Below, piece by piece: positions 14,882-29,190 of a stretch of DNA of 32,067 bases. Numbering within the stretch: position 1 is the stretch's first letter; the number at the start of each line of letters is the position of its first letter. Position numbers and translations under genes: made by a program. This DNA comes from Bacteroidales bacterium (lineage in GTDB: Bacteria; Bacteroidota; Bacteroidia; Bacteroidales; FEN-979), in contig JANXZO010000041.1 in assembly GCA_025355465.1 (NCBI GenBank), positions 1-32,067 on the forward strand. The letters are read 5' to 3'. Below the pieces are notes generated by a model. The model had not been told where the DNA came from, ran no database searches, and worked only from the letters and a program-made list of their open reading frames with translations.

Positions 14882-15463
14882 ATGAAAAAACTAACTCATT
14901 TCACTATCGCGTTTCTTGTTCTTGGATTTTTCCAGGCCAATGCCCAGGAACAAAAAAAGTCAACCGCTCCTGTTAAAGCGAACCAGGCAACACTTGTTAA
15001 TGATTTCTACATCTCCTATGGATTTGGTTCACTCTATTTTATTTCAAACCAGGGTGGAGGAAGCAATTCATACAAAACCTCAGGCGCTGTTATTTTAGGA
15101 TACTCGCGTTCGCTGAGTATGGTTGTTGCTGTCGGGTTTCAGGCTAGTTTCATGAATATCTCGCATAAAAGCGGATCTAGTACCTATGAGGATAATTATT
15201 GGTCGGGACTTGCCAACGTCCGGTTCAGATATTATAACAGACCATCTTTCTGCATGTATTCCGGGGTAGCTCTGGGGATAGCGATGGATTACATAAACGA
15301 GAATAAAACCTCCGGAACAAATAGTTACCAGAACTACTATCCGGCAGGGCAATTGACGCTGCTTGGCTTCCGTGTTGGGCGGTCACTTAGTTTTTTCGGT
15401 GAGTTCGGGATCGGAACCAATTCCATCATCAACGGAGGCATCAGCTATAAGTTTGGGGAATAG
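14882..15463 (+). CDS. Hypothetical outer-membrane beta-barrel protein
   Basis: 193 residues from ATG 14882; the upstream TTG reading adds seven residues that are not signal-like. The signal peptide MKKLTHFTIAFLVLGFFQAN ends before AQEQ. Strands include FYISYGFGSLYFISNQGG, GAVILGYSRSLSMVVAVGFQ, NVRFRYYNRPSFCMYSGVAL, LTLLGFRVGRSLSFFGEFGI and the final NGGISYKFGE. It is a small 8-stranded-like barrel with no named family that I recognise. It is transcribed alone from a strong promoter and converges with a frameshifted DUF3575 gene whose true end lies only 7 bp beyond this stop. Confidence 0.75.
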   Translation: MKKLTHFTIAFLVLGFFQANAQEQKKSTAPVKANQATLVNDFYISYGFGSLYFISNQGGGSNSYKTSGAVILGYSRSLSMVVAVGFQASFMNISHKSGSSTYEDNYWSGLANVRFRYYNRPSFCMYSGVALGIAMDYINENKTSGTNSYQNYYPAGQLTLLGFRVGRSLSFFGEFGIGTNSIINGGISYKFGE

Positions 15464-15470
15464 GGTGTTG

Positions 15471-16211
15471 TTATAAATGAAACCCGATCGAGACCGAATA
15501 TCTGAACCCCGGACTTAATTGAATCTTTGTTCCTGTATGCCGCAATGTTTCACCGCTGAACAAAGTACCGATCAGCGGATATCGGCTTATCATTCAAGGC
15601 TTTCTGCATAGGTGCTTAAGGAGGGTCCGAAAAGAACCAGATCGACGGAGAGGCGTTTCCAGAAGATAAATTGATATCCAAGCGTGATACCTGCATTTAT
15701 AACGTTTAGGTCGCCCTTTATGGATGCCCCCTGATCAACGGTTGTGCGGAGGATGTTAATGCCGTTTTTAAAATGAAACCCATAATAGGAGAGATAGGGA
15801 GCAAGATATACACCATCCGGAGCAGGTCGCCGGTTCCGCTTACCCAGATAAAATCTGTATTCCGTACTCACATTAATTCCCCATTTCTGCCGGCTGGTGA
15901 GCGAAACCAGGTTGGCAATTGTGTCGGCGAACAGCGCGGGAAATTCAAGGTATCCGATTTGTACCGCAATTGATTGATTGTTCTTAATAAGACGCTCATA
16001 GCTGATTGTAACATTCCGTACACTGCTCCAGCATCATTGGTGTAGGATTGAACTTGATGACATTCCGGTGGATGGGTACAGGGTATTCAGATTTTTCCCG
16101 TGCTGGTTTTATCCCCGCCTGGGCCAGGTTTGCTGAGTCTGTTTTTTGCTGACTAACAACCGGTTTGGACAGCCCCAGTGCTAAAGCAATGATAAGGAAA
16201 AGGATTCTCAT
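15471..16211 (-). pseudogene. DUF3575-like outer-membrane barrel gene with two compensating frameshifts
   Basis: The N-terminus (frame from ATG 16211) has a signal peptide ending VVSQQ and the strand HRNVIKFNPTPMM. At about 16029-16031 the frame breaks: it stops 8 codons later, while the family-like sequence continues in the next frame as WSSVRNVTISYERLIKNN, IAVQIGYLEFPALF, QKWGINVSTEYRFYLGKRNR, VYLAPYLSYYGFHF, NAGITLGYQFIFWKRLSVDL. That frame stops at 15590. The original frame then resumes with SRYPLIGTLFSGET and a typical closing strand FRYSVSIGFHL, ending at a TAA at 15471. The two shifts cancel: the span is exactly 247 codons. Either the gene is decayed, the assembly has two errors, or the changes are real and tolerated. 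It is the last gene of an operon with the 16233 gene, 21 bp upstream. Confidence 0.8.
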
Positions 16212-16232
16212 TTACAGATTGTTATTGGTTGG

Positions 16233-18560
16233 TTAACGACGACCACCCCGGGGCATTCCACCACCTTCCCGATTTTGCATTCCACTCATGCCTCCACCGC
16301 TCCGCTGAAAATTACCCCTGTTCATGTTTTGCTGACTGGCACGATCTCGGTCCATATTCTGACGGTCCATGTTCTGCTGGTCGAAACTGCCGGATTCGCG
16401 TGCTGGCTGGGATGATCTTGCCCCCGAAGGTTGACCCGGAGCTGAATTTCTGTCGGCCTGCTGCCAACTCCTGCCATCATTTTGTTCCCAGTTATTGCCG
16501 TTTCTCCGATAGACCTCGCCGTTATTCCCGGTGAACACATTGTTCTTCGTATTTTCAGCCCGTGGGGCTCGTTGCATTCCGTCTGATGGCTGGCGATTGC
16601 CAGAACCCTGCCGGTCAATAGGCTGTGTAGCTGCCTGACGGTTATGGGCGGTAGTTCCCGATTGAACCCCGGTTCGATGGTTGTTGTACAGGTTGTTCTG
16701 GTTAACGTTGTTCCTGTTATAGGTATTTACATTGATGGTTGTATTTCTTGCATAAACAGCTCCTCCGCCGTAATAATGGTTGTAGGGCGTGGCGAAAGGC
16801 GGCCGGTACATTGGAGGGCCCCACCATCCTCCATGGTACATCGGCGCTCCAACACCAACATGAATAAATCCGGCGGAAAATCCAAATCCCATGTTCCAAC
16901 CCGTCCAGGGATTATAATTCATGCTGAAACCCCAGGTAACAGGTCGCGGGTAATAGTATGCCCCATACCAGCAGGGGTATTGGTAACCGGTGCCGTAAAC
17001 AATGGTTGGACCATTCACATAGCAGCCAACATAGCCAGGCAGATAACCCATATAAACCACCGAAGGCTGAACATCATAAATATAAACGTACTTTACGTTG
17101 TATGCAGGATTGTCAGGAGGAATTTTCTGAATGTCGGCAGGGATCGCGGTTGCCACAACCCATGGACCGGTAGGGGAATTCCCGATAAACCAGACCGCAT
17201 TTTCACAAACATAATAGACTGAGGCTGACATGATCACTGAACTACTTGTGTTGACACCCCGGTAAAGCAGTGTGCCTTTAATCTGTTCAAATTTCGGATC
17301 TCCGTCGTATGTAACGGTGCAGGTTGCTGTATTGCGGTCAACTGCAGCAGTTTGAGGAATTTGAGAATCCATAATCGCCTCCTTGGCGGCCGTGGTTCCG
17401 GCAACGGAAGCCAGTACAATATCGTTGACCGTGCCTTCGGGGATCCTATAAAAATCCGGAGGAAGATTCTCAGAGGCTGTGTAGTTCCAGGGACCTTTCA
17501 GATTTTTAGAAGTATACCATCGGCCGGAAATGAGGATGTAATACTGCTGCTGGTCGATGGCCATAAAAATTTTGTTGTCTGTGTTTGTCATATACAACAA
17601 CTGGGTTTCCTGTATCGGAGCAAAATCAGGTTCCCCGGTTGATTGTAGAAGTTCGGCAGGTTTGGTCCGGACGATAATATCAGGAATTGCAAGGGGAGAT
17701 TCCTTTACGGCTGTTGTTCCGGATGCTGACGGATCCGCATTGGCAGGTTTCATGTTCTCCTGCATTTTCATTATGTCATCTGGTGGTTCTTTAATGTTTC
17801 TCCATGGAGCGTTCACAACATCTGCAGAGGTAAACCAAAAGTCTCCTCCGTAAAGAAAATATTGTTTGCTCTTGTTATCCTGCACGACAAAATAGGGGGT
17901 ATTGATCGCTTTTTGAACGTCGGTGTTTTCAACAGGTTTAAAAACAGGATTTCCATCAAATAGGAGAAGAACGCCTGGTTTGTCCATGAAGATGATTTCA
18001 GGAGGCGTATTGTCGAAGTTTTGAGCTTGCTTAATAATGGCAGAGTTTGCTTTCAGGGTCGCCGTGAGATCGCTCAATGAACCTGAAATCTCCCACTTTG
18101 GAATTTCCGTTTCCAGCAGCGATTTGAACTGTCCGATCTTATCCTCCGGAATGGAGTCCTGGTTAGGAAACCTGACGTTTGTAATGGTAACAGCCACGAG
18201 AGTGATCTCACCAGTTTGGCGGTCGGTATTGAGTGTTGCAGAAGCCCAAACAGCGCCGAAAACCGGTTGGTCCTGTTGTGTGGTTATCGAAACAGCTGCC
18301 CTTGCATACAACCTGATGCCAACAAGAGAATCAGGCTGTGGCTGATAAACCAGGATGCGTGCGCCGTTGGAGTTAATCTCTTTGGGCCAGTTGGATACCA
18401 TTTGTGGAGAGAGACCTGATTTGTCCGATTTTCCCGATTTTCCCGAAGTTTGACAAAATCCCTTCACAAACGTTCCCCCGACAAGGATTATCATTAGGGT
18501 TTTCATTAATAAATGGGTCAATGTTTTCATCATAAAGGCTTTACGTATAAAACCTACCAT
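16233..18560 (-). CDS. Exported triple-repeat carbohydrate-binding (CBM5/12-like) protein
   Basis: 775 residues from ATG 18560, which overlaps the upstream gene by 7 bp; ATGs at 18533 or 18530 would start closer to the signal peptide (hydrophobic MKTLMIILVGGTFVKGFCQ). Three related units of about 60 residues lie near 195-255, 301-361 and 413-471. Each ends with a Trp-rich motif: FWFTSADVVNAPW, RWYTSKNLKGPW, VWFIGNSPTGPW. These resemble the short WY..GPW pattern of chitin-binding family V/XII modules. A Tyr/Trp/Gly-rich segment follows (505-605), then a low-complexity Asn/Gln/Arg/Gly tail ending RGGRR. The role is unknown; surface glycan binding is inferred. The gene sits between two barrel genes in one operon. 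Confidence 0.7.
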   Translation of the reverse strand: MVGFIRKAFMMKTLTHLLMKTLMIILVGGTFVKGFCQTSGKSGKSDKSGLSPQMVSNWPKEINSNGARILVYQPQPDSLVGIRLYARAAVSITTQQDQPVFGAVWASATLNTDRQTGEITLVAVTITNVRFPNQDSIPEDKIGQFKSLLETEIPKWEISGSLSDLTATLKANSAIIKQAQNFDNTPPEIIFMDKPGVLLLFDGNPVFKPVENTDVQKAINTPYFVVQDNKSKQYFLYGGDFWFTSADVVNAPWRNIKEPPDDIMKMQENMKPANADPSASGTTAVKESPLAIPDIIVRTKPAELLQSTGEPDFAPIQETQLLYMTNTDNKIFMAIDQQQYYILISGRWYTSKNLKGPWNYTASENLPPDFYRIPEGTVNDIVLASVAGTTAAKEAIMDSQIPQTAAVDRNTATCTVTYDGDPKFEQIKGTLLYRGVNTSSSVIMSASVYYVCENAVWFIGNSPTGPWVVATAIPADIQKIPPDNPAYNVKYVYIYDVQPSVVYMGYLPGYVGCYVNGPTIVYGTGYQYPCWYGAYYYPRPVTWGFSMNYNPWTGWNMGFGFSAGFIHVGVGAPMYHGGWWGPPMYRPPFATPYNHYYGGGAVYARNTTINVNTYNRNNVNQNNLYNNHRTGVQSGTTAHNRQAATQPIDRQGSGNRQPSDGMQRAPRAENTKNNVFTGNNGEVYRRNGNNWEQNDGRSWQQADRNSAPGQPSGARSSQPARESGSFDQQNMDRQNMDRDRASQQNMNRGNFQRSGGGMSGMQNREGGGMPRGGRR

Positions 18561-19171
18561 ACACGTCCAAGCCGGAACACCAAACCACCGGTGAAACCAA
18601 ACTGTACCATGGTCGAATACAGCGACACACCGGTTGAAGGGCCGCCACCGCCAAAGTACATGGTGAAGCCGGCTCCCTGAATGGGCAGGTACATCTGAGC
18701 CTGGAGTTTTATTCCAACACGTTTGGAGAAGTAAATTTTAGCACCTCCGTTTATTCCTGCAGAGAAAAACCAGGCATCATTAAACTGGCCTTCTTTCGGA
18801 TAAAACAATACGGTACCGATATTCATCCCAAAGTAGGGTGAAACAACAGGATTAACACGAAAATTTTTGGTAAAGCCGATCTGCATATAATTCACGCTGA
18901 CAGGCGATTCCAGTAAGCTGAAATTATACCCGCTGAATTGTGCTTTGGTATCCGAGCGGTTGTAAATAATATCCACGTCTACAGCACGGCTGATTCCTAC
19001 ACTGATTTGCCCTCCGTATTGTGCATTACCGGCAATGTATACACTCCCTCCGTTGCCGTTCCAAGTACTTCCGAATACATACCCGCCAAATGGTGTGATT
19101 TCAACTGTCTGTGTTTTAGCCATGAAAGGCAGCATCAGGACGACTGCCATCACAATGATTAGCTTCTTCAT
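18554..19171 (-). CDS. Hypothetical outer-membrane beta-barrel protein
   Basis: 205 residues with signal peptide MKKLIIVMAVVLMLPFMAKT. The mature protein is a glycine-rich barrel: VEITPFGGYVFGSTWNGNGG, YGGQISVGISRAVDVDIIYN, VNYMQIGFTKNFRVNPVVSP, YFGMNIGTVLFYPKEGQFND, INGGAKIYFSKRVGIKLQAQ and the closing GFTGGLVFRLGRVW. It resembles general OmpW/Opacity-like eight-stranded barrels, but the family is not certain. It leads a minus-strand operon with the 775-residue repeat protein (7-bp overlap) and the broken DUF3575 gene. A promoter box lies 32 bp upstream. Confidence 0.75.
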   Translation of the reverse strand: MKKLIIVMAVVLMLPFMAKTQTVEITPFGGYVFGSTWNGNGGSVYIAGNAQYGGQISVGISRAVDVDIIYNRSDTKAQFSGYNFSLLESPVSVNYMQIGFTKNFRVNPVVSPYFGMNIGTVLFYPKEGQFNDAWFFSAGINGGAKIYFSKRVGIKLQAQMYLPIQGAGFTMYFGGGGPSTGVSLYSTMVQFGFTGGLVFRLGRVW

Positions 19172-29115: not shown

Positions 29116-29190
29116 TGGGATTTGAGGGATTCGAACCCACGACCCCCGCCCTGTCAAGGCGATGCTCTAAACCAACTGAGCTAAAATCCC
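29116..29190 (-). tRNA. tRNA-Val (anticodon GAC)
   Basis: 75 bases read on the minus strand. The acceptor stem is GGGATTT/AAATCCC with discriminator A, and CCA is not encoded. The D-arm has TAGCTCAGTTGG, and the T-arm has the canonical GGTTCGAATCC. The anticodon loop is TTGACAG on a 5-bp stem TCGCC/GGCGG (outer pair U-G), giving anticodon GAC, which reads valine GUC/GUU codons. It stands alone, with a TATCTTTG box just upstream and a hairpin terminator downstream. Confidence 0.95.

What the first reader, a model, noticed from the sequence alone, without database searches (positions are those of the whole stretch)
15471..16211. DUF3575-like barrel gene carrying two frameshifts that cancel out
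Seen directly: the N-terminal part (16211 to about 16030) and the C-terminal strand FRYSVSIGFHL (ending at 15471) are in the same frame, but the 145 codons between them that carry the family-like barrel sequence are in another frame. The full span is exactly 247 codons. Neither break is in a homopolymer: one is at ATGATGCTGGAG, the other at CTTGAATGATAA. That makes ordinary homopolymer miscalls less likely. Possibilities are a decaying gene, two assembly errors, or a recoding event.
Basis: partly seen in the sequence, partly recalled or inferred. Interest (0 to 1): 0.6.

Follow-up and report, generated by a model that had tools for sequence, protein, structure and literature searches.

The report
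Broken outer-membrane barrel gene
A gene for a small outer-membrane barrel protein in a Bacteroidales-type bacterium appears to have lost two short pieces of DNA and can no longer be read as one protein, most likely an ordinary recent gene loss and not a new way of reading genes.

Summary
Three pieces of 16211-15471 (-), in two frames, align in order to one intact protein. The cause looks ordinary: compared with its closest relatives the gene lacks 2 nt at the first break and 61 nt at the second, 63 nt or 21 codons in all, so the outer frames agree by arithmetic. Relatives keep one uninterrupted frame: 26 of 29 aligned family copies and 20 of 21 further copies. The nearest relative has it intact in the same gene order. 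Reading from the start codon stops after 71 residues, and nine stops lie between the outer pieces, leaving a signal-peptide-like start and one barrel strand. No aligned relative shares break 1 or the 61-nt loss; one (G037) is frameshifted near break 2. No slippery heptamer lies within 40 nt of either break. Recoding is very unlikely. Substitutions show no decay, so the losses are recent or, less likely, assembly errors; no reads were available. Verdict: recent pseudogene of a DUF3575-type barrel, low interest.

The parts
16032..16211 (-). N-terminal piece in frame 1: signal-peptide-like start and first barrel strand (60 codons)
   Evidence: NVIKFNPTPMM aligns to relatives; strand 43-48 of the relative's model
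16028..16034 (-). Break 1: 2 nt fewer than in the relatives of its own clade
15996..16031 (-). Out-of-frame tail of the frame-1 reading, 11 codons then stop TGA (predicted 71-aa product)
15593..16030 (-). Middle piece in frame 2, 146 codons, six predicted barrel strands, Pfam DUF3575 match; its first ATG/GTG/TTG is only at 15871
15590..15595 (-). Break 2: 61 nt (20 codons + 1 nt) missing against relatives, followed directly by an in-frame stop
15471..15593 (-). C-terminal piece in frame 1, 40 codons, last strands of the barrel, and stop
16233..18560 (-). Intact upstream gene (775 aa), 21 nt before the broken gene; also just upstream of the intact gene in G012
18554..19171 (-). Intact upstream barrel-like gene (205 aa), same order in G012

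Best explanation
It is a recently inactivated gene (pseudogene) for a DUF3575-type outer-membrane beta-barrel, probably the last gene of a three-gene operon. Two separate deletions, 2 nt just after the first strand and 61 nt in the long loop after the seventh of nine predicted strands, each shift the frame. Translation from the normal start would give a 71-residue product, a signal-peptide-like start plus one strand, so no barrel can be made. One deletion probably came first and the other followed once the gene was no longer selected. Shown: the collinear homology, the sizes of the losses, the intact gene in the same gene order in a relative, the stops. Inferred: operon, order and age of events, loss of function, and that the assembly is right.
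For: Three collinear pieces match one intact protein, joint E 2.4e-76. 26 of 29 aligned family copies are one open frame through both sites (29 of the 39 matches outside the window's genome were aligned); 28 of 29 have exactly 20 residues where the window has none. The nearest relative, G012, carries it intact behind the metallo-hydrolase, pyruvate kinase, 205-aa barrel and 775-aa genes in the window's order. The gene is dispensable: 17 of 43 genomes, the window's own among the 43, have no match, some of them incomplete. Other damaged copies exist: a frameshift in G037, 5' truncation in G036 and G020. In a coding-frame scan this gene is the only one of 28 coding segments flagged in the window, and 2 of 291 are flagged in 381 kb of the rest of the genome, so the assembly is not generally full of frame errors. 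No slippery heptamer within 40 nt of either break.
Against: No sign of decay apart from the two deletions: dN to the G012 gene is 0.256 against 0.18-0.36 in six neighbours (dS is saturated, so a ratio is not usable), 2 of 49 invariant columns are changed against 0-4 in 26 intact copies, and the end branch, 0.61, is shorter than that of the nearest relative, 0.78 (that fork is unresolved). This fits a very recent loss but equally an assembly error. Only one genome of the genus is held, so no second genome confirms it. The five-gene order was found in 1 of 10 stretches fetched.
Confidence: 0.8

Rival explanations
1. Assembly or consensus error: the organism's gene is intact, and the contig carries two false deletions, for example from mixing of strains or low coverage.
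For: No substitution-level decay. PMC11017572 (abstract seen) reports that many apparent pseudogenes in bacterial assemblies are assembly errors. The genome is in 75 contigs.
Against: Two independent errors inside one 0.75-kb gene while the 27 other coding segments of the window are not flagged and only 2 of 291 elsewhere. No run of 4 or more equal bases at either break. A 61-nt loss is not a base-calling slip.
Confidence: 0.16
2. Programmed recoding: ribosomes change frame twice and make one full-length protein.
For: The protein sequence of the pieces is still constrained. One relative, G037, has a frame change in the same direction within a few residues of break 2, at an in-frame A AAG GGG. 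The stretch after break 2 folds slightly better than shuffles (z -1.33, 17 of 200 shuffles as good).
Against: 27 of 29 family copies run in frame through break 1 (the other two lack the region) and 28 of 29 through break 2. At break 2, 61 nt are absent. No X XXY YYZ heptamer lies within 40 nt of either break, and the stretch after break 1 folds worse than shuffles (z 1.40). G037 keeps the 20-residue segment, and the window does not have its heptamer. PMC3711429 (abstract seen) uses conserved position and motifs as signs of recoding.
Confidence: 0.02
3. The middle piece is a separate, shorter gene that does not belong with the outer pieces.
For: It is an open frame of its own.
Against: Its first ATG/GTG/TTG is GTG at 15871, 53 codons into the homologous part, it would lack a signal peptide, and relatives hold all three pieces in one frame.
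Confidence: 0.02

Closest known systems
Pfam PF12099 (DUF3575)
   Same: The middle piece matches above the gathering score; the nearest relative is predicted to be a beta-barrel.
   Different: The match is weak and partial (profile 60-134 of 177), and the nearest intact relative falls just under the cut-off (20.7 against 21.1 bits). Here the gene is broken.
Frameshift pseudogenes of prokaryotes (GeneTack survey, PMC3711429, abstract seen)
   Same: Frame changes without a conserved position or a recoding motif.
   Different: Two lesions in one gene, one of them a 61-nt loss.
Small outer-membrane barrels such as CarO, OprF N-terminal domain, Ail (PDB fold hits)
   Same: Small barrel; Foldseek hits to 3dzm, 4fuv, 4rlc, 3qra.
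   Different: TM-scores are low (0.28-0.53 for these) and no PDB chain matches the profile by sequence at E up to 1; fold likeness only.

Membership tests
DUF3575 (PF12099) | Score at or above the Pfam gathering score | tested here: met
   24.1 against 21.1 bits for the middle piece; the intact relative L032 gave 20.7, just under
DUF3575 (PF12099) | Intact barrel protein | tested here: not met
   Stop after 71 residues and two losses; relatives are intact
Pseudogene | Disruption absent from orthologues, including one at the same place in the genome | tested here: met
Pseudogene | Relaxed selection visible in substitutions | tested here: not met
   consistent with a recent event, for which these tests have little power
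Pseudogene | Disruption supported by reads or a second isolate | not testable with these tools
   No reads; only one genome of the genus held
Programmed frameshift | Frame change conserved among relatives | tested here: not met
   Break 1 in 0 of 27 copies that hold the region; at break 2 one of 29 (G037) has its own frameshift nearby, without the 61-nt loss
Programmed frameshift | Slippery heptamer X XXY YYZ at the site | tested here: not met
   None in any frame within 40 nt of either break; other slip motifs were not scanned
Programmed frameshift | Stimulatory structure downstream | tested here: inconclusive
   z 1.40 after break 1, z -1.33 after break 2

The most novel reading that the evidence does not exclude
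The gene is still expressed as a full-length barrel through two frame changes, one of which tolerates loss of 20 codons of a surface loop; the lack of substitution decay would then be real selection on a shortened, recoded protein.
Probability: 0.02. Interest if true: 0.75.

Novelty: new member of a known kind. Interest (0 to 1): 0.08.

Why it matters
As a pseudogene it matters little: it is one more example of a patchily kept outer-membrane barrel being lost, and a caution that two frame breaks which sum to a multiple of three need no special mechanism. It would matter only if protein evidence showed a full-length product.

Tried and rejected
Recoding was rejected, though G037's nearby frameshift and a weak fold after break 2 are on the other side. 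A paralogue mix-up was rejected because the window's genome has only one match to the middle piece and the intact relative sits in the same gene order. Long-term decay was looked for and not found.

Rows dropped or not looked at. One search gave 39 matches outside the window's genome; 29 became loci and were aligned. Of the other ten, several were seen later through other loci (such as L083, L088, L089, L092), but the short matches in G034:C255 and G025:C155 were not examined. In one search, three of the 29 (L026, L027, L030) were dropped as damaged or cut by a contig end; the tree kept them, and L026's long branch there probably comes from its frameshifted tail. In one search, 47 of the 52 loci were measured; L052, L061, L063, L077 and L083 were left out (contig edge, damaged, or doubtful record). 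In one search, 42 of the 47 were aligned.

The first frame scan saw the middle piece as a lone coding segment and the outer pieces as non-coding; I loosened its penalties. That scan finds only missing starts and frame switches, was trained on the same stretches of the window's genome, and is a lower bound. One of its two flags outside the window (L098) read like a normal gene (by eye). A single-sequence structure model was useless (mean pLDDT 33.4) and was replaced by an alignment-based one (83.2). NCBIfam had no match for this gene at E up to 0.1. A full-text search for DUF3575 found 2 papers: passages of PMC10434189 only list DUF3575 genes in expression tables; PMC10470040 was seen in the listing only.

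Full report
Observation. The window is the whole of contig C33 of a 3.54-Mb, 75-contig genome estimated 98.77% complete. On the minus strand from 16211 to 15471, frame 1 gives a signal-peptide-like start and NVIKFNPTPMM, then runs out of register, meets a stop after 71 residues and eight more stops, and ends with MISRYPLIGTLFSGETLRHTGTKIQLSPGFRYSVSIGFHL. Frame 2 holds the barrel-like middle piece of 146 codons from 16030 to 15593. The middle piece matches Pfam DUF3575 at 24.1 bits, over the gathering score of 21.1.

Do the pieces belong together? Yes. Of 43 genomes of the same family, the window's own among them, 26 have a match to the middle piece, 40 matches in all, 39 outside the window's genome. 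I aligned 29 of these 39 with the window's three pieces. In 26 of the 29, one open frame runs through everything. Of the other three, L030 is cut by a contig end, L027 (G036) is 5'-truncated, and L026 (G037) has one frameshift. One tblastn query, the intact protein L003, picks up all three window pieces in order with joint E 2.4e-76. A scan of a wider genome collection gave 52 loci; I measured 47, of which 26 are the same contigs as above by their length. Of the 21 further ones, 20 are full single open frames.

What the breaks are. A DNA alignment with six relatives shows 61 nt fewer in the window than in each of the six at break 2, and 28 of 29 homologues have exactly 20 residues where the window has none. 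At break 1 the window is 2 nt shorter than four of the six and 1 nt longer than two (L004, L007) that lack one codon there. The six other members of the window's clade (support 99) all have the longer form, so a 2-nt loss is the simplest reading. The losses add to 63 nt, which is why the first and last pieces share a frame. Given two frameshifting changes, such agreement is about an even chance and needs no explanation.

What is lost. The model of the nearest relative (L032, the same contig as L003), built on 42 aligned sequences (mean pLDDT 83.2), has strands at 43-48, 61-70, 73-82, 96-114, 127-147, 155-177, 181-203, 239-247 and 251-259, with a helix at 207-224 in the long loop. Break 1 falls at residue 54, just after the first strand. 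The 61-nt loss covers residues 201-220, the end of one strand and most of that helix. The normal start codon therefore gives only a signal-peptide-like start and one strand; the middle piece has no ATG/GTG/TTG until 15871. Foldseek places the fold near small outer-membrane barrels (3dzm E 8.4e-05, CarO 4fuv E 2.5e-04) with low TM-scores, and no PDB chain matches the profile by sequence at E up to 1.

Neighbourhood. In G012 (locus L084) the window's order recurs: metallo-hydrolase, pyruvate kinase, 205-aa barrel, 775-aa protein, then the intact gene, with the 216-aa barrel and a DUF4136 gene beyond on the other strand; three further window genes lie between the first two and gave no hit there. 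This is 1 of the 10 stretches fetched; in the other nine the five-gene order is not seen. The window's gene starts 21 nt after the 775-aa gene, so it is probably the last gene of an operon (inferred from spacing).

How recent, or is it an error? Between window and G012 the middle piece has dN 0.256, against 0.18-0.36 for six neighbouring genes (dS is saturated). The window changes 2 of 49 columns that are invariant in the other 26 rows, while the intact copies change 0-4. Its end branch is 0.61, that of L003 is 0.78. Substitutions show no decay. By my own estimate, two indels could build up in an unselected gene of this size with only a few percent neutral change, which these tests would not resolve; an assembly error would look the same. 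A coding-frame scan flags this gene alone among 28 coding segments of the window, 2 of 291 in 381 kb of the rest of the genome, and 6 of 309 in 356 kb of relatives. One of the two is a further interrupted barrel-like gene with an in-frame TAG (L096), for which 8 of 14 matches in relatives lie in open frames of 350-424 residues. PMC11017572 (abstract) warns that many such cases are assembly errors, so I keep 0.16 for that.

Recoding. Break 1 is in none of the 27 copies that hold the region. At break 2, 61 nt are absent; one relative, G037, has its own frameshift within a few residues and in the same direction, at an in-frame A AAG GGG run, but keeps the 20-residue segment. The window has no such heptamer within 40 nt of either break. 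The stretch after break 1 folds worse than shuffles (z 1.40) and that after break 2 slightly better (z -1.33). PMC3711429 (abstract) reports 4010 pseudogene clusters and 146 recoding clusters among frame-changed prokaryote genes. I put recoding at 0.02.

Verdict. An ordinary, recent pseudogene of a DUF3575-type outer-membrane barrel, with assembly error as the main rival.

Noticed in passing
L096 (G000:C3) 15340-16506: A second barrel-like gene of the same genome seems interrupted by an in-frame TAG at 15865-15867; 8 of 14 matches in relatives lie in open frames of 350-424 residues. Whether the piece before the TAG is homologous in them was not tested.
   Followed up: partly
L091 3551-4332 (G037): A copy of the family is frameshifted in the same loop as break 2, in the same direction, at an in-frame A AAG GGG heptamer; an indel in the G run or a slippage site could explain it. 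The other aligned copies lack that heptamer in this loop.
   Followed up: partly
L090 5591-6112 (G036); L083 4119-4424 (G020): Two 5'-truncated copies of the same family, away from contig ends.
   Followed up: partly
L088, L089, L092: Three relatives carry two copies of the family a few kb apart in opposite orientation; in L088 the pair flanks relatives of the window's 9145-11730 genes.
   Followed up: no
L059, L077: Records titled Alphaproteobacteria and Klebsiella pneumoniae MAGs carry this Bacteroidota-type gene; the bins may be mislabelled or contaminated.
   Followed up: no
window 29116-29190: A tRNA gene on the minus strand, the only Rfam match at the gathering score in the window.
   Followed up: no
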